This document shows, piece after piece, positions 1 through 7,396 of a DNA stretch of 64,000 bases; the stretch's first letter is position 1, and each line of letters begins with the position of its first letter. The position numbers and the translations under genes are program-made. Origin of the DNA: Planctomycetota bacterium (GTDB lineage Bacteria; Planctomycetota; Phycisphaerae; UBA1845; UTPLA1); contig JAATGM010000060.1 of assembly GCA_015654675.1 (NCBI GenBank), forward strand, positions 1 through 64,000, read 5' to 3'. Below the pieces are notes generated by a model, which saw only the letters and a list, made by a program, of their open reading frames with translations, was not told where the DNA came from and searched no databases.

Positions 1-640
1 GGCGGGTTTGGGGGGGAGCCGGCGGAATCATAAGTAAGTGGTAATTAGTAATACATAATATCTCATTTTGCTCCTTTGTGGTCGGGATGGTGTTGCTTGT
101 TGTGGCGCGGGGCCGCGCGCAATTTGCGAGTTTGGTGAAGCGGGATTCGGAACTCGAACGGGGAAACGGCATTGGATCGTTGGCAGGCCGGGGGATGTGC
201 GGTGTGCGATGTCCGGTGGACGCGGGCTTGCGGCAGTCTTCGCGGCGAGGGTCGCCAGGGCGATTCCCAGAGTCGCGCCGCCGGTTCTGACGGCGCGTCG
301 CTCCGCGGCGCGGGGGATTCAGGATTGGGGGCGGGGCGGGGAATGAACTGGGGGTTGGGGGACGGGGGTTGGGCGTCAGGCGTCAGTTTGTGTGGGGGCG
401 GTCGGGGAGGGGCCGGGCGGATTGGTTGGGTGACGCGTCCGAAGAAGCGGGCGCGGGCTCGTGTTGGAATCGTGGTAGAAGTATGTGACCATTCGAAATA
501 GGTGGCTGTCCCGAACGGCATCGGTAGGAATTGTGATCGGCAGCGTTAGGCTCATGCTTCGTCAGCCCTAATTCGACACGCCCAGTTACAGAATTGCGCA
601 GCCCGTGTCGCGATAGCCTATAGAAACTAAGCACGGGCGG
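1..640. other. No recognisable gene
   Basis: I see nothing here that I can support as a gene. The stretch opens with an A+T-rich block at about 25-75, then becomes very G-rich on the plus strand to about 470. Open frames on both strands are low-complexity (Pro/Arg-rich on minus, Gly/Arg-rich on plus), as expected from base skew. The end of the adjacent minus-strand cassette lies just right of this region, so part of it may be its 3' flank; no clear hairpin-plus-T terminator was found. Confidence 0.5.
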
Positions 641-1837
641 TTATTCGTGTATGACGATTCGGTGCCCCAATAATTGGTGGCGCTCGATATCAAGCACGCT
701 TAGTTTGGACTCCGCACGCGGAGTTCTGGATATTCGCAATGCTCGGTGTAACGACCTAGAGCACACACGGACGTTATGCAGGAGCAACTTGTCGATTGGT
801 GTTCCGGACGGGGTCCGCGTCGCGTCCCAGGAAAGTTGCCCCTCCACGCGGTGAGCGCTTCGGCGCATTTTGGCCTTCATGTTCGGGGACGTATCGATGG
901 CGATTACTCGAGCGAATGCGCTTGAGAGCTCTGGAATGTGCGCAAACCCGGCTCGTAGCAATAGGGTAAGCGGACGACGCACCGCTCGTGCAAGCGTCGC
1001 GAGGTGGGCAGAGTGCCATGCGCGCCGTGGAGAAGATCTGCCCATAGTACCCATCTCATATGCCACGGCGTAGATTGACGGCGAGGCGTTTAGGTACTCA
1101 GCCCACCGATGAAAATCATGCGTCGTGCGTCCGTTCACGTGAAGGGCGGTAGGAAGCCCAGCGCTGGCAAACTCGTCAAAACATGACGCAATGCGGGACA
1201 TGCTCACTAGATTGTCATGGCGCACGACGTCGGCGTGCGTCGAGAAATTGGGCGTTGCGATCAGAGAAGGCCGCAGCATTCGGATCGCCTCGGCCGTCTT
1301 CTTCGCTCGGAAAACATGCCAGAACCGCTCCACATTCCGGTCTGATCCTGTCGCGGTGATGACTAGGCGAGCATCCGAATCGACCTTGAAACGAGCAAGC
1401 AGCTCATTGCGCGAGGTGAAGCGGGGGAGGCCGGTGTTAGCGTCAATGATCGAGTATAGGGAAATGGCAACAGCGGGAAGCGGAAGTGGCCCAACAAGCG
1501 TGCCCACATCCAGCATGCAGGGGACATAGTCAGGTATGACGAGCATTGGTGCGACGCGGCCCTTGTATGGCCTTAGGTCCAATCCGCCGGCTTCGTTAAC
1601 CATGTTGCTGTAGCGACGCTGATTTGGGCAAATGACACGTCGGCAACCGTTCGGAGTGCCACAGCATAAGTCCATGCAATTAAATGCGGAGGCGGCGATG
1701 CTCAGTCCCCCGCACTGGTGTAGCTCGGGACACTTCGTGCACCCAAGCTTTACTTCCTCACCTTCCTGGTGCCAGAGGGACGGATTCGCGAGCTTTTGTC
1801 GAACGTTCAAGCTTATGGAAAGCGTTCGAGGACTCAT
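641..1837 (-). CDS. Cysteine-cluster protein, possibly DUF4417-like (last gene of cassette)
   Basis: A 398-residue protein of unknown function. Eight cysteines lie within 38 residues near the N-terminus (C33, C36, C42, C54, C58, C59, C65, C70), a density that suggests a Zn or Fe-S site. The middle (about residues 190-260), with a TPNFSTHADV segment followed by a G-L-P-T-A-L-H-V strand and a YAVAYEMGTMG stretch, resembles by eye the DUF4417 family of phage and mobile-element proteins; this needs a profile search. There is no signal peptide or membrane segment, so it is probably cytoplasmic. ATG has a GGAG five bases upstream, and it starts two bases after the stop of the previous gene, so translation is probably coupled. 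It is the last of four co-oriented genes. Confidence 0.75.
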   Translation of the reverse strand: MSPRTLSISLNVRQKLANPSLWHQEGEEVKLGCTKCPELHQCGGLSIAASAFNCMDLCCGTPNGCRRVICPNQRRYSNMVNEAGGLDLRPYKGRVAPMLVIPDYVPCMLDVGTLVGPLPLPAVAISLYSIIDANTGLPRFTSRNELLARFKVDSDARLVITATGSDRNVERFWHVFRAKKTAEAIRMLRPSLIATPNFSTHADVVRHDNLVSMSRIASCFDEFASAGLPTALHVNGRTTHDFHRWAEYLNASPSIYAVAYEMGTMGRSSPRRAWHSAHLATLARAVRRPLTLLLRAGFAHIPELSSAFARVIAIDTSPNMKAKMRRSAHRVEGQLSWDATRTPSGTPIDKLLLHNVRVCSRSLHRALRISRTPRAESKLSVLDIERHQLLGHRIVIHE

Positions 1838-1839
1838 AG

Positions 1840-2187
1840 CTACTCCAGTTGTATTTCAGCCATTCCCGTCAAAGAAAAAACGCTGTTAACTGTGCCGAGC
1901 GCACTCGGAAACGCACACCGCATTGTGTTCACGAGGCTTGGAGGAGGGCGCTCGACGCGACCAATCACGGACACGCCGCGCACGACGAGTAGTCTCGATT
2001 CGTCATCGAGTGCCAAACGGCAATCTTCTCCGGCAGTAAATACATGGCCATTTTCGGGTGTGGCGACGACGGCGATTGAGAACTGCGGCGTACCGGTAAA
2101 AAGCGTTGGGTCTTCTAGCGCGTCAAGACATCTCCGTTGTTTTCGCTCGAAGCTGTCGGCCGCCTTTTCGATCATGTCGGTGCCCAT
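1840..2187 (-). CDS. Small unknown protein of the GHKL/STAS-like cassette
   Basis: A 115-residue protein that I do not recognise. The chosen ATG (MGTDMIEK) has a GGAG ten bases upstream; it lies inside the 3' end of the STAS-like gene, so the two overlap by about 65 bases. After an N-terminal charged helix (residues 1-25) the rest looks beta-rich (FSIAVVATP, RLLVVRGVSVIGRV, SVFSLTGMAEIQ). It contains C20, C56 and C90 but no recognisable metal-binding spacing. Position between the STAS-like regulator and the Cys-cluster protein suggests a partner or adaptor; that is inference only. Confidence 0.65.
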   Translation of the reverse strand: MGTDMIEKAADSFERKQRRCLDALEDPTLFTGTPQFSIAVVATPENGHVFTAGEDCRLALDDESRLLVVRGVSVIGRVERPPPSLVNTMRCAFPSALGTVNSVFSLTGMAEIQLE

Positions 2188-2752
2188 AGTGCAGGTTCTC
2201 CACAAGAGGTCGGTAAAGCCTGGAACGCCCCCGGCGCTCGGATGTGAGTATTCCTTTCGCTTCCAGCGCAGCGAGACGGTTATTAGCAGCGGACGCCCCT
2301 AACCCTCTTATTGCAGCCGACACAAACGTAGCATCGAATTCGAATTGACCTTCGACCGCGGCAAGTGCGGCTCCAAGGGCGGGATCGAGGCGCCCCAGTA
2401 ATACTGGATGTTGAAAGGAGGATTCGGTCGTCGAGCCCGTAGCTATCAGCACCTGTCCTGTGGCCTCAAGCGCTACTTCGAGCTCTTCCCGTACTGTTGA
2501 AGATAGGCCGGAGGCTACAAGATTGACGTCTTGTCGCATTGCTGCGGCGTACCTACAAAGCGCCAATGCGCCTTCGCGGAGCCAGCTAACGGTGGCGAGT
2601 CGGACGCCGGCGAAATCAATTGCACAAAACCCCGGCGGTGCGCTGTCGACAATCTGCCGTGCGGCTTGGAACCAAGCGAGACCATCAGTCGCGCCGGCGA
2701 GTTCGGCTGATCGTGCAGTTTTACGAACCGAGATGGACGTGCAGATGTTCAT
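2123..2752 (-). CDS. STAS-like (DUF4325-type) protein with C-terminal winged helix
   Basis: A 209-residue two-domain protein. Residues about 35-105 read as a STAS-like domain of the DUF4325 type: strand CAIDFAGV, then SWLREGALALC helix, second strand VNLVASGL and a further helix. Residues about 122-182 look like a winged helix-turn-helix, with recognition-helix-like GASAANNRLAALEAKGILT and wing SERRGRSRLYRPL. DUF4325 proteins commonly sit beside GHKL ATPases, and here a GHKL ATPase is immediately upstream (36-base gap). By analogy with partner switching, the ATPase may bind or phosphorylate the STAS-like domain to control DNA binding. The start codon lies in a perfect 16-bp palindrome and has no clear Shine-Dalgarno site, which suggests autoregulation or coupling to the upstream gene. 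Confidence 0.8.
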   Translation of the reverse strand: MNICTSISVRKTARSAELAGATDGLAWFQAARQIVDSAPPGFCAIDFAGVRLATVSWLREGALALCRYAAAMRQDVNLVASGLSSTVREELEVALEATGQVLIATGSTTESSFQHPVLLGRLDPALGAALAAVEGQFEFDATFVSAAIRGLGASAANNRLAALEAKGILTSERRGRSRLYRPLVENLHYGHRHDRKGGRQLRAKTTEMS

Positions 2753-2760
2753 ATGAACAT
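2745..2760. promoter_or_regulatory. Perfect 16-bp palindrome over the STAS-like gene start codon
   Basis: ATGTTCATATGAACAT reads identically on both strands. The minus-strand ATG of the STAS-like/winged-helix gene is within it, and a further A+T-rich ATGAATAT follows at 2761-2767. It is a good candidate operator for a dimeric winged-helix protein, most simply the product of the same gene. A role as an RNA hairpin masking the start is also possible. Confidence 0.4.
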
Positions 2761-2788
2761 ATGAATATACGTCGGCGTGGGGCCGCAG

Positions 2789-3613
2789 TCAACCCGATCT
2801 ACCAGAAATCGTCGAAATTTCGGCTGATACCACTACCCCTTGTTGGTGCGGTCTTTGTGAGCAGATACCCTCGTCCGGGCGGGCTTCGATTCCCGCAATT
2901 TCAAGGACTGCCTTCCCCGACCGCAATCGAATCGTGCCCTCGGCTGCGCGAAGTGGCAGAAAAACCGCGCGGTAGCCATAGCCATACCCCTTGTCTCGAC
3001 CGCGCCTGGATACACCTGCCGTAATCGCGAGCGGCAACGCTTCAAGGTCGTCGCTGAGGGAATGGAATTCATTGGCTCGTTGCAAACTCGCAAGCATTCC
3101 GATTCCGGAATCGCCGATTGCGTACTCAAACTTTCGGGGCGATCTGGCAAACGTAGCGATGCCTGAACTGGGCGCCTCACTGTGCTGCACGACATTGTCG
3201 GCAAGCTCTCCGATCGCGCCGGCAAGCCCCGCCGCGATCGAATCGGGAAAGCCAACGCTGCGCGCCGAAACTTCCGCGCGCTTTACAAATGCTGTCCAGC
3301 CAGGATGTCTGCCAAGAGACGACGGAATCGCGATGGCATCCGAGTCCGCAGGATGAAGGCTCAGGTTTATGTTCTCTGGTAATTTGCCGTCGAGCAGACA
3401 AATGATCCGGTGAGCGATTGGTGAGTGCGTATGGTCGCGAAGCGGTGGCAAATGAGTTCCGCCGTTTCGACGAAAAAGCTCGTACTCAAGCACGGGTCCA
3501 ACACGCTGACCGATTTGGGTGTCAAGGCAATTCACGACATTGAGTGCAATGGCTTTGGTCGCGAGTGTGATTTCATCTAGGAACTGCGCGGACCTGATTT
3601 TGTTTTTACTCAT
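2789..3613 (-). CDS. GHKL-fold ATPase (histidine-kinase/anti-sigma-like), first gene of cassette
   Basis: A 274-residue protein with a C-terminal Bergerat-fold ATPase. The N box is GAIGELADNVVQHS (E136, N140), the G1 box is YAIGDSGIGM (D168, G170, G172), and the G2-like loop is KGYGYGYRAVFLPL (about 208-221). There is no H-box dimerisation helix, sensor or membrane segment, so this resembles an RsbW/SpoIIAB-type or stand-alone GHKL protein more than a canonical sensor kinase. The N-terminal about 110 residues are unassigned. It begins the four-gene minus-strand cassette, and its proximity to a STAS-like protein suggests partner switching. No strong Shine-Dalgarno site precedes the ATG. The cassette has lower G+C than its neighbours (bases 3361-3420 hold 28 G or C of 60), compatible with horizontal acquisition. 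Confidence 0.85.
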   Translation of the reverse strand: MSKNKIRSAQFLDEITLATKAIALNVVNCLDTQIGQRVGPVLEYELFRRNGGTHLPPLRDHTHSPIAHRIICLLDGKLPENINLSLHPADSDAIAIPSSLGRHPGWTAFVKRAEVSARSVGFPDSIAAGLAGAIGELADNVVQHSEAPSSGIATFARSPRKFEYAIGDSGIGMLASLQRANEFHSLSDDLEALPLAITAGVSRRGRDKGYGYGYRAVFLPLRAAEGTIRLRSGKAVLEIAGIEARPDEGICSQRPHQQGVVVSAEISTISGRSG

Positions 3614-4045: not shown

Positions 4046-7000
4046 CTATTGATTTATGGTCAGCATGATCAGGGTGGTTACGTTGGGGTCGGGGGTGATT
4101 GTGTCTGCGCCGGCGTTGCCGTTGATGGTTAGGGAGTCGGTGGTGGGGTCTGAGTGCATGATTCGCACTGCGGCGGGGAGGCCGGTTACTTCCACGGCGT
4201 TGGCGATGGCGGCGACGTTGATCGCGTCGGGTTGGGTGGTGCCGTTGACGGTGATGGTGTCGGGTTGAGCGTCGCCGGTTGTCCCGCCGACTGATCCGGC
4301 CAGGTCGATGTTTACCTGGGTGATGGTGGTGGTGGTCAGGTCGTTGACGGTGGCGATGTCCGTGCCGCCGAGGGCGCGGAGGTCGAACTGTTCGAAGGTG
4401 TCGGCGTCCAGGGTGATGGCGCCGATGTTTCGCGTGAAGCGGAGGCGCGGGCCGTTGGCGGAGAGGTCGAAGGTTTCGTTGGCGTTTGAGCCGTTGAAGA
4501 CGATGGTGTCGTGGCCGGTGTCGCCGTCGACTGTGTCGCTGCCGTCGCCGGGGTCCCATTGGACGGTGTCATTGCCTGCGCCGCCGCGGATCGTGTCGTT
4601 GCCCTGATTGCCGTCGATGAAGTCGTTGTCGTCGCCACCGAGGAGTACGTCTGCGCCGTTGCTGCCGAGCAGGGTGTCGTCGCCGGGGCCGCCGTCGGCG
4701 GTGATCTGAATCAGGGCGGCTAAGTTGCCGGTGCAGGCGAGGGAGTCGTTGCCGCCGTGGGCGTTTAGGACGAGGTTTTCGCAGGCGGCAATATCTAGGA
4801 AGAATGGGGCGGGGCTGATTCGGTCGAAGCGGACGTTTGCCCCGTTGGCGGTGACGGTGAAGCTTTCGGGGCTGTCGTCGCCGTTGACTTCGACGGTGTC
4901 GATGCCGTCGCGGCCGTCGATGGTGTCGGTTCCGTCGCCGGGGTTCCAGATGAAGCGGTCGTTGCCGGAGCCACCCTGCAGGGTGTCGTCGTTGCCGCGG
5001 CCGATGAGGGTGTCGTTGTCTTCGTCGCCGTTGATGAGGTCGGCGGCGGCGCTGCCGGTGAGGGTGTCGTCGCCGAATCCGCCGTTGATGGTGAGGGCGA
5101 TGAAACCGGATGCGAGGCCGGCGGCCTGGACGGTGTCGTTGCCGGCGAGGGCATTGATGGTGAGCCCGTCATTGGCGGCTTCGGCCTTGGCGATGTTCAC
5201 GGTTGCGGAGAGGCCGACGACGAGCGTGCCGGTCAGGCCGCCGGCGACGGTGATGGTGTCGTCGCCGCTGGTGGCGTTGACGATGATGTTGTCGGCCTGG
5301 GCGTCGCCGGTGGGGCCGCCGATTGTGCCGGCGAGGTCGATGTTGATCTGGGCGAGGGCGGTTCCGGTGAGGTCGTTGATGGTGGCGATATCGGCGCCGC
5401 CGAGGGCGCGGAGGTCGAACTGTTCGAAGGTGTCGGCGTCGAGGGTAATTGCGCCGACGTTGCGGGTGAAGCGGAGGCGCTGGCCGGCGGCGGAGAAGTC
5501 GAAGGTTTCGTTGGCGGCTGAGCCGTTGAAGACGATAACGTCCTGGCCGGCGTCGCCGTCGACGGTGTCGCTGCCGTCGCCGGGGTCCCACTGGAAGGTG
5601 TCGTTGCCGGGGCCGCCGTGGACGGTGTCGTTGCCCTGGTTGCCGTCGAGGAAGTCGTTGTCGTCCCCACCGAGGAGCAGGTCGGGGCCGTTGCTGCCGA
5701 GGAGGGTGTCGTCGCCGGGTCCGCCGTCGAGCGTGATGGGGACGATGGCGGCGAGGTTGCCGACGCAAGTCAGCGTGTCGTTGCCGGCGAGTCCGTTGAT
5801 TACGAGTGACAATGCACCGCTGGCTCCGACGGCGGCGGAAAAGCCGGTGGCGTCGATGCGGGCCTGGGTGCCGTTGGCGGTGACGGTGATGGTGTCGGCT
5901 GCGGGGGAGCCGTTGATGTTCAGCGTGTCGCCACCGATTCCGGTGAAGACGAGCTGGTCGGAGGTTTCGTATCCGCGGACGCGGACGGCGGCCGAGCGAT
6001 CGACGACGACGAAGCCGGAGTCGGCGGAGACGTTGAAGGTGTCGGCTTGTGGGGAGCCGATGATGTTGACGGTGTCGGGTGCGGCGTCGCCGGTTGTGCC
6101 GCCGAGGGTGGCGGCGAGGTCGATGTTCAGCTGGGTGAGGGCGGTGGGGGTGAGGTCGTTGGCGTTGACGATGTCGGTGCCGCCCAAGGCGCGGAGGTCG
6201 AATTGTTCGACGGTGTCGGCGTCCAAGGTGATGGCGCCGATGTTTCGCGTGAAGCGGAGGCGCTGGCCGTTGGGGGAGAGGTCGAAGGTTTCGTTGGCGT
6301 TTGAGCCGTTGAAGACGATGGTGTCGTGGCCGGCGTCGCCGTCGATGATGTCGCTGCCGTCGCCGGGGTCCCATTGGACTGTGTCGTTGCCTGCGCCGCC
6401 GTGGATGGTGTCGTTGCCTTGATTGCCGTCGATGAAGTCGTTGTCGTCGCCGCCGAGTAGGACATCGGGGCCGTTGCTGCCGAGGAGGGTGTCGTCGCCG
6501 GGGCCGCCGTCGGCGGTGATCTGGATGAGGGCGGCGAGGTTGCCGGTGCAGGCGAGGGAGTCGTTGCCGCCTTTGGCGTTGAGGACGAGGTTTTCGCAGG
6601 CGGCGATGTCGAGGAAGAATGGGGCGGGGCTTATTCGGTCGAAGCGGACGTTTGCGCCGTTGGCGGTGACTGCGAAGCTTTCGGGGCTGTCGTCGCCGTT
6701 TACTTCGACGGTGTCGATGCCGTCGCGGCCGTCGATGGTGTCGGTTCCGTCGCCGGGGTTCCAGATGAAGCGGTCGTTGCCGGGGCCGAGGACGGCGGTG
6801 TCGTTGCCCGGGCCGCCGATGAATGTTTCGCCGCCGCTGCCGCCGATGAGCGTGTCGGCGCCGCTGCCGCCGTCGATGGTGGTGAGCTCGGTGTCGGTGA
6901 AGATGCCGTTTGATTCGTCGATGAAGACGAGGTCGTTGCCGCCGCGGGCGAAGACCTGGATGCAGGTGAAGAGGTCGCGGTCGAAGGCGAAGTCGGGGAC

Positions 7001-7396
7001 GCCGTCGTTGCCGACGTCGATGTCGAGGATGTTGGGGGCGCCGGCGCGGAGGCGGAGTGCGAGGGCTGAGTCGGCGGGGGTTCCGATGATTTGCAGGCAT
7101 CCGTTTTGAATCTGGGCGCGGTGTTCGCCGAGGATGCAGCGGACGAGCGGGGCGATATCGGCGGCGGTGACGCCGTTGGCGCCGTCGAGGTCGGCTGCGC
7201 AGGGCGAGCAACGGGACTGCGGGCCGCCGAGGAGGGTTGCCATGAATGCCTGGGCGTCGCGGCCGTCGATTTCGCCGTCGCAGTTGGCGTCGCAGGCGTC
7301 GCATGTGGGTGAGGGCGCGGTGGATTGGGCGCGGAGCGGGAGGGCGGCCGCGGCCAGGATGAGTGCAACGATGTAGAGTTCGCGGAATCGGGTCAT
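4046..7396 (-). CDS. Secreted dockerin/RTX-type calcium-binding repeat protein
   Basis: A 1116-residue extracellular protein. Residues 1-25 form a signal peptide ending ALPLRAQS. Residues about 31-92 resemble a planctomycete dockerin with two Ca loops (DANCDGEIDGRD and DLDGANGVTAAD) and Cys pairs. The rest is made of beta strands and hemolysin-type nonapeptides of the GGxGxDxLx kind (for example GGPGDDTLLGSNG, GNQGNDTIHGGAGNDT). A block of about 230 residues occurs twice (206-440 and 812-1043) with a shorter related copy between (about 545-700), and DNA is nearly identical between copies. No C-terminal sorting signal or catalytic domain is visible; it could be an adhesin or surface-layer-like protein. 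ATG has GGAG five bases upstream. Confidence 0.85.
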   Translation of the reverse strand: MTRFRELYIVALILAAAALPLRAQSTAPSPTCDACDANCDGEIDGRDAQAFMATLLGGPQSRCSPCAADLDGANGVTAADIAPLVRCILGEHRAQIQNGCLQIIGTPADSALALRLRAGAPNILDIDVGNDGVPDFAFDRDLFTCIQVFARGGNDLVFIDESNGIFTDTELTTIDGGSGADTLIGGSGGETFIGGPGNDTAVLGPGNDRFIWNPGDGTDTIDGRDGIDTVEVNGDDSPESFAVTANGANVRFDRISPAPFFLDIAACENLVLNAKGGNDSLACTGNLAALIQITADGGPGDDTLLGSNGPDVLLGGDDNDFIDGNQGNDTIHGGAGNDTVQWDPGDGSDIIDGDAGHDTIVFNGSNANETFDLSPNGQRLRFTRNIGAITLDADTVEQFDLRALGGTDIVNANDLTPTALTQLNIDLAATLGGTTGDAAPDTVNIIGSPQADTFNVSADSGFVVVDRSAAVRVRGYETSDQLVFTGIGGDTLNINGSPAADTITVTANGTQARIDATGFSAAVGASGALSLVINGLAGNDTLTCVGNLAAIVPITLDGGPGDDTLLGSNGPDLLLGGDDNDFLDGNQGNDTVHGGPGNDTFQWDPGDGSDTVDGDAGQDVIVFNGSAANETFDFSAAGQRLRFTRNVGAITLDADTFEQFDLRALGGADIATINDLTGTALAQINIDLAGTIGGPTGDAQADNIIVNATSGDDTITVAGGLTGTLVVGLSATVNIAKAEAANDGLTINALAGNDTVQAAGLASGFIALTINGGFGDDTLTGSAAADLINGDEDNDTLIGRGNDDTLQGGSGNDRFIWNPGDGTDTIDGRDGIDTVEVNGDDSPESFTVTANGANVRFDRISPAPFFLDIAACENLVLNAHGGNDSLACTGNLAALIQITADGGPGDDTLLGSNGADVLLGGDDNDFIDGNQGNDTIRGGAGNDTVQWDPGDGSDTVDGDTGHDTIVFNGSNANETFDLSANGPRLRFTRNIGAITLDADTFEQFDLRALGGTDIATVNDLTTTTITQVNIDLAGSVGGTTGDAQPDTITVNGTTQPDAINVAAIANAVEVTGLPAAVRIMHSDPTTDSLTINGNAGADTITPDPNVTTLIMLTINQ
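4268..4963 (-). repeat. Internal long repeat, copy C of dockerin/RTX gene
   Basis: Encodes residues 812-1043, nearly matching residues 206-440 (copy A). Runs such as DSPESF, VTANGANVRFDRISPAPFF and DIAACENLVLNA recur almost unchanged, and the nucleotides match closely, so the duplication is recent or homogenised by gene conversion. Confidence 0.8.
5297..5764 (-). repeat. Internal long repeat, shorter copy B of dockerin/RTX gene
   Basis: Encodes residues about 545-700 and corresponds to the second half of copies A and C (from GNLAA through FEQFDLRALGG to TGDAQ). It is more diverged, for example TFDFSAAGQRLRFTRNVG against TFDLSPNGQRLRFTRNIG in copy A. Confidence 0.75.
6077..6781 (-). repeat. 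Internal long repeat, copy A of dockerin/RTX gene
   Basis: Encodes residues 206-440, the N-terminal copy of the block seen again at 4268-4963. The pair are in the same orientation about 1.8 kb apart and could recombine to delete or add a unit. Confidence 0.8.

What the first reader, a model, noticed from the sequence alone, without database searches (positions are those of the whole stretch)
641..3613. Four-gene cassette: GHKL ATPase, STAS-like winged-helix regulator, small unknown, eight-Cys protein
Seen: four co-oriented genes with 2-base and overlapping junctions; an ATPase with N, G1 and G2 boxes, a DUF4325-like domain fused to a winged helix, a 115-aa unknown and a protein with eight cysteines in 38 residues. 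Base composition is lower in G+C than its neighbours. Known: GHKL ATPases and STAS-like proteins form partner-switch pairs. Inference: the fusion lets the switch act directly on DNA, and the Cys-cluster protein, perhaps DUF4417-like, is the sensor or effector. No nearby mobility genes and no named defence system with this set is known to me.
Basis: partly seen in the sequence, partly recalled or inferred. Interest (0 to 1): 0.75.

Follow-up and report, generated by a model that had tools for sequence, protein, structure and literature searches.

The report
Four-gene switch beside anti-phage systems
A four-gene cassette that looks like a phosphorylation-controlled gene switch occurs intact in 15 unrelated places in bacteria, usually welded to a different anti-phage immune system each time; its two core genes resemble a recently described immune regulator (CapK/CapS), while its other two genes are new parts whose job is unknown.

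Summary
The four genes are real. I found the same set in 14 other loci (planctomycete genomes, rhizobial plasmids, one IMG/VR contig), searching by the Cys protein alone. All four proteins co-evolve.

Nine of the 15 cassettes directly abut a recognised defence system on the same strand: Gabija (twice), Kiwa (twice), Mokosh, Hma, SPARTA, type III R-M (one with TIR; one cut by a contig end). Three more abut candidate genes. Sister cassettes carry different systems, so it is a portable module.

The STAS-winged-helix protein is homologous to CapS (PDB 9z71/9z72) and keeps the serine that CapK phosphorylates. In 14 of 15 loci its gene has a consensus sigma70 promoter, in 13 overlapped by a TTCA/CTCA-N10/11-TGAA/TGAG palindrome. 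TTCA-N10 matches the CapS wide-palindrome spacing; the half-site differs.

Differences from CapKS: the kinase lacks CapK's HTH and the segment bearing the ssDNA-binding Trp; two conserved proteins are added, a 115-aa protein and an 8-Cys protein whose AlphaFold core is a TIM barrel resembling tRNA-guanine transglycosylases/DpdA (fold only; no sequence-profile support). The window copy has no adjacent effector.

Verdict: new variant of a known kind. Regulation of the neighbour is inferred, not shown.

The parts
2789..3613 (-). GHKL (HATPase_c_2-type) kinase-like protein, 274 aa; ~110-aa front part without HTH
   Evidence: Pfam HATPase_c_2 E 0.0043 below cut-off; N box E136/N140/H144, G1 D168/G170/G172, G2 G211/G213 invariant across relatives and CapK
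2123..2752 (-). CapS-like STAS-winged-helix protein, 209 aa; S56 = equivalent of CapS phospho-Ser54
   Evidence: family HMM hits CapS structures 9z71/9z72; AF2 pLDDT 86 with STAS 1-114 and wHTH 121-190; PF14213 DUF4325 in 7 of 15 family members; S56 alignment
1840..2187 (-). conserved small protein, 115 aa, unknown (starts MGxxFI/MI)
   Evidence: present in all 15 cassettes, co-evolves with the others; no Pfam/PADLOC/NCBIfam hit
641..1837 (-). eight-Cys protein (relatives named DUF4417 by NCBI), N-terminal Cys region plus predicted TIM barrel
   Evidence: Cys columns conserved in 14 proteins; AF2 barrel 88-316, structural neighbours all TGT/DpdA
2787..2792 (-). -35 element TTGACT of the STAS-wHTH promoter (overlaps GHKL stop codon)
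   Evidence: sequence; TTGAC found in 14 of 15 loci upstream of STAS
2764..2769 (-). -10 element TATATT, 17-bp spacer
   Evidence: sequence
2747..2766 (-). palindrome ATTCATATGTTCATATGAAC (TTCA-N10-TGAA, inner TTCA-N2-TGAA), proposed operator
   Evidence: within 3 mismatches this place is the only one in the whole genome

Best explanation
It is a self-contained, horizontally moving regulatory module of the CapK/CapS type. Proposed working: the STAS-wHTH protein dimerises through its STAS domain, binds the palindrome over its own promoter and keeps the operon (and, where it lies downstream, the immune operon) low; on a signal the GHKL protein phosphorylates S56, the dimer falls apart and the operon is expressed. 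Because the kinase lacks the CapK segment that carries the ssDNA-binding Trp, the signal is probably fed in by the two extra proteins, the eight-Cys barrel protein and the 115-aa protein. Shown here: gene set, conservation, co-evolution, adjacency to diverse defence systems, homology to CapS, conserved Ser and kinase boxes, promoter plus palindrome. Inferred from CapKS: repression, phosphorylation, derepression. Pure inference: role of the Cys and small proteins.
For: Set conserved in 15 loci and co-evolving (Mantel rho 0.61-0.87, permutation p<=0.0005). Adjacent defence: Gabija L003/L006, Kiwa L005/L036, Mokosh L008, Hma L004, SPARTA L013, type III R-M L022/L023. Sister cassettes carry different systems. 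CapS structures are the best full-length PDB hits; Ser54=S56; CapK catalytic N218=N140. TTGAC upstream of STAS in 14/15 loci against 6% of random windows, palindrome at the promoter in 13/15. CapKS biochemistry: PMC13373217.
Against: The extra operator that CapS binds at the downstream immune operon was not found; only one weak candidate lies before GajA in L006. In L022/L023 the R-M genes lie upstream of the cassette, and in L005/L006 the GHKL gene runs antisense between STAS operon and effector, so the palindrome-bearing promoter cannot simply drive those effectors. Three cassettes (window, L024, L009) have no recognised partner. Clustering with defence genes can also reflect defence islands in general. 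No expression or binding data.
Confidence: 0.68

Rival explanations
1. The cassette is itself a complete defence or toxin-antitoxin-like system: the barrel Cys protein is an enzyme held in check by the STAS protein and/or small protein and released by the GHKL kinase, as VapS restrains VapC in VapKSC; neighbours are just defence-island company.
For: Solo copies exist (window, L024). The barrel protein keeps polar residues at strand ends (D166, E170, N197, S199, R206, D241, E261, T264 invariant) and resembles TGT/DpdA enzymes by fold. Effectors in L005/L006/L022/L023 are not obviously under the palindrome. VapKSC precedent (PMC13373217).
Against: The STAS protein keeps an intact winged helix and a palindrome sits on its promoter, pointing to DNA binding rather than toxin neutralisation only. 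Tight operon-like joins (15-31 bp) to effectors in L003, L013, L025 are more than island company. The window barrel has no toxin-family match.
Confidence: 0.24
2. A general stress regulator unrelated to immunity; the defence neighbours are accidental.
For: CapKS authors note that some CapKS neighbours (Bub, yegP) may be general stress pathways (PMC13373217). Solo copies exist.
Against: 9 of 15 cassettes, found without using defence genes as bait, directly abut a recognised defence system, with six kinds represented.
Confidence: 0.06

Closest known systems
CapK + CapS (Controller of associated pathways; Chambers et al., EMBO J 2026, PMC13373217)
   Different: Kinase has no HTH and no segment with W68; half-site TTCA/CTCA instead of TTAA; gene order varies (GHKL first in 9, last or antisense in 6); two extra conserved genes; partners Gabija, Kiwa, Mokosh, Hma, SPARTA are not on the published list; second operator at the immune promoter not found
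VapKSC
   Same: GHKL + STAS pair in an anti-phage operon
   Different: VapS has no wHTH and partners a PIN-domain VapC; the cassette has no PIN gene
SpoIIAB/SpoIIAA and RsbW/RsbV partner switches
   Same: GHKL and STAS folds, Ser phosphorylation site
   Different: No sigma factor in the cassette; STAS protein is fused to a DNA-binding domain
tRNA-guanine transglycosylase / DpdA DNA preQ0 insertase
   Same: Predicted barrel of the Cys protein matches all top 50 structures (Z 13.3-14.7)
   Different: No sequence-profile similarity; Cys cluster is N-terminal; the position proposed for the nucleophile is not invariant
CapW/BrxR, CapH+CapP, RptR
   Same: Regulators attached to many defence systems
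   Different: Different protein families

Membership tests
CapK/CapS | STAS-wHTH repressor homologous to CapS over its length | tested here: met
   HMM of 14 relatives hits 9z71 E 9e-6 and 9z72 E 3e-5 over positions 3-173; AF2/VIA show STAS and wHTH
CapK/CapS | Conserved phospho-acceptor Ser (CapS S54) | tested here: met
   S56 aligns with S54 and is invariant in the 14 aligned relatives
CapK/CapS | GHKL kinase with conserved active-site Asn | tested here: met
   N140 aligns with CapK N218
CapK/CapS | CapK architecture HTH-STAS-GHKL with ssDNA-binding W68 | tested here: not met
   Window and relatives lack the HTH and the segment carrying W68
CapK/CapS | capK immediately followed by capS | tested here: not met
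   True in 9 of 15 loci (the window included), false in 6, so not a rule of this family
CapK/CapS | Palindromic operator in the capS promoter | tested here: met
   13 of 15 loci, other half-site; binding itself not tested
CapK/CapS | Second operator at the downstream immune operon | tested here: inconclusive
   No clear second site in any locus; one weak candidate in L006 at 7961
CapK/CapS | Located beside diverse immune operons | tested here: met
   the window copy itself has no visible partner
CapK/CapS | Kinase activated by ssDNA, phosphorylation dissociates the repressor | not testable with these tools
   needs bench work
VapKSC | PIN-domain VapC partner and STAS protein without wHTH | tested here: not met
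   No PIN gene in the cassette; wHTH present
Sigma-factor partner switch (SpoIIA/Rsb) | Sigma factor encoded with the switch | tested here: not met
   None among the four genes
Pfam DUF4417 (PF14386) | Score above the gathering threshold | tested here: not met
   No hit for P0004; 1 of 14 relatives, E 0.0085
TGT / DpdA | TGT-type TIM barrel | tested here: inconclusive
   AF2 core pLDDT about 80; top 50 VIA rows all TGT/DpdA, Z 13.3-14.7; three-row alignment only
TGT / DpdA | Sequence-profile similarity to TGT | tested here: not met
   hhalign probability 0.1% against 13 TGT proteins; set-up had no positive control
TGT / DpdA | Conserved catalytic Asp pair | tested here: inconclusive
   D166 invariant; D315 is E in L005/L006 and S in L025; correspondence to TGT residues is a guess from strand order

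The most novel reading that the evidence does not exclude
The eight-Cys barrel protein is a transglycosylase-like nucleic-acid sensor or enzyme that detects foreign or modified DNA or tRNA and, with the 115-aa protein, activates the GHKL kinase, so one interchangeable module couples a new kind of signal to Gabija, Kiwa, Mokosh, SPARTA, Hma and R-M systems.
Probability: 0.15. Interest if true: 0.85.

Novelty: new variant of a known kind. Interest (0 to 1): 0.62.

Why it matters
How bacteria keep costly immune systems off until needed is open for most systems. To my knowledge Gabija, Kiwa, Mokosh, Hma and SPARTA have no dedicated attached regulator; here one cassette sits against all of them and has been swapped between them. 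It extends the CapKS principle beyond ssDNA sensing by its own kinase, and gives two new conserved protein families, one with a metal- or Fe-S-type Cys cluster, that can be tested as sensors.

Tried and rejected
Pfam, PADLOC and NCBIfam scans of the four window proteins gave only weak GHKL and HTH matches; PADLOC's DrmA (GHKL) and Csa3 (wHTH) hits are domain-level cross-matches. Phage records: no relative of the Cys protein; IMG/VR: one locus, other scans empty. MADS genes considered from memory: the paper search was swamped by eukaryotic Mad1/Mad2, and PADLOC's mad models did not match the four window proteins. PDB search with the Cys family: nothing. hhalign with TGT: nothing. CapS is absent from the fold-search rows for the STAS model; its library stops at April 2026. 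Window operator elsewhere in the genome: none. Remnant of the type III REase in the window: none. L003-type GajA elsewhere in the genome: none, but without a positive control. The per-locus dyad test against shuffles is mostly not significant; only the sum over loci (76 against 66.2, sd 2.4) and the shared motif are.

Full report
Observation. Four minus-strand ORFs lie at 3613..641: GHKL, STAS-wHTH, a 115-aa protein and a 398-aa protein with eight Cys in residues 33-70. The last two genes are 2 bp apart and STAS overlaps the small gene by 65 bp, but GHKL and STAS are 36 bp apart. GC of 641-3613 is 0.568 against a mean of 0.625 (sd 0.023) for 3-kb stretches of the window, and none is as low; GC3 is 0.53-0.63 against 0.88 and 0.78 in two neighbouring genes. 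This and the patchy spread (none of the other same-family genomes listed; 4 of 114 in the order, the window's own included; 6 of 397 in the class, likewise) point to horizontal gain.

The set recurs. Searches that used only the Cys protein as bait found it in a Phycisphaerales MAG (L003), in further genomes of the phylum (L013, L022-L026), in plasmids of Aminobacter, Sinorhizobium, Rhizobium and Planctomyces (L004-L009) and in one IMG/VR contig (L036). In all 15 places, the window included, all four genes are present. Pairwise identities of the four proteins correlate (rho 0.61-0.87, permutation p<=0.0005) and three single-gene trees give the same sister pairs.

Partners. On the same strand and directly beside the cassette lie Gabija in L003 and L006, Kiwa in L005 and L036, Mokosh in L008, HmaC/HmaB in L004, TIR-APAZ plus short Argonaute (SPARTA) in L013, and type III R-M (with a TIR gene) in L023; L022 is cut by its contig end inside a REase 93% identical to that of L023. 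L025 has DUF6119 15 bp downstream, L026 a DUF3800 gene and L007 an upstream NACHT gene. The window, L024 and L009 have no recognised partner. Sisters differ: L005 Kiwa/L006 Gabija (73% identical Cys proteins), L004 Hma/L036 Kiwa, L007 NACHT/L008 Mokosh, L013 SPARTA/L025 DUF6119. Gabija and Kiwa each occur with two distant cassette lineages.

STAS-wHTH and GHKL. A profile of the STAS-wHTH family finds PDB 9z71 and 9z72/9z73 as its only full-length matches (E 9e-6 and 3e-5). I take these to be the CapS structures because the 9z71 sequence (over the aligned 160 residues) is identical to WP_001567865.1, the E. roggenkampii CapS named in PMC13373217. CapS Ser54, which CapK phosphorylates, aligns with S56, invariant in the 14 aligned relatives. 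The AlphaFold model (pLDDT 86) has a STAS domain and a winged helix matching STAS proteins including SpoIIAA, and ArsR/BlaI/MarR regulators. The GHKL protein keeps the N, G1 and G2 boxes, with N140 at CapK N218, but lacks CapK's HTH and the segment with W68, which CapK needs for ssDNA activation.

Promoter. TTGAC lies within 75 bp upstream of STAS in 14 of 15 loci, against 6% of random windows, also where STAS is the second gene, followed by a TAT-type -10. In 13 loci [C/T]TCA-N10/11-TGA[A/G] overlaps the -10 to start region. In PMC13373217 CapS binds TTAA-N10-TTAA and TTAA-N1-TTAA; the window has TTCA-N10-TGAA with an inner TTCA-N2-TGAA. The motif was read off these loci, so the count is descriptive; a dyad test against shuffles gives a summed score of 76 against 66.2 (sd 2.4), with most single loci not significant. 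A scan of the whole genome for the window palindrome finds only this place. A second operator at effectors was not found. Thus own-operon control is well supported, while control of the neighbour is plausible for L003, L013 and L025 (15-31 bp joins), possible for L004, L008 and L036, and not explained for L005, L006, L022 and L023.

Cys protein. The Cys columns are conserved. Three-row AlphaFold gave a confident barrel (about 88-316) and no model of the Cys region. All top 50 VIA rows are TGT-family, including DpdA (Z 13.3-14.7, 209-237 residues, 7-11% identity), and the BFVD search also lists phage queuine tRNA-ribosyltransferases. hhalign against 13 TGT proteins found nothing. I therefore claim a fold resemblance only. 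DUF4417 is reported fused to ParB-CTPase folds in phages (PMC12704722), and a Streptomyces plasmid DUF4417 gene lies next to a ParB-domain gene.

Assessment. The core works like CapKS and is homologous to it on the repressor side; the cassette fails the CapK architecture test and adds two genes. CapKS was published in June 2026 and the paper mentions neither cysteine, Gabija, Kiwa nor Argonaute. I rate it a new variant of a known kind.

Noticed in passing
L006 7033-7872 (-) and L005 7033-7932 (-): The GHKL gene lies on the minus strand, overlapping the end of the DUF4417 gene; the public records annotate a 299-aa 'hypothetical protein' on the other strand there, which looks spurious.
   Followed up: yes
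window 1-640: Contig start, no convincing ORF, strong G over C skew (0.39 in 1-500); whatever follows the cassette is not in this contig.
   Followed up: partly
window 4046-7396 (-): 1116-aa protein with haemolysin-type GGxGxD calcium-binding repeats, GC3 0.88, directly upstream of the cassette.
   Followed up: no
L025 1698-13878: Cassette sits between a type IIG R-M, NsnA-like and PDC-M30A-like genes upstream and DUF6119 plus a PsyrA-like phosphoribosyltransferase downstream: a dense defence island with untested members.
   Followed up: partly
L040 3995-4567: CapS-like gene on a Pseudomonas plasmid without an annotated CapK next to it, a few genes after a Cas3-annotated gene.
   Followed up: no
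L006 7961-7979: CTCA-N11-TGAA in the GHKL-GajA intergenic region, possibly a second operator; not conserved in L005.
   Followed up: partly
L010 3382-5807: Streptomyces plasmids carry a different DUF4417 branch; in the one read here it follows a ParB-N-domain gene.
   Followed up: no
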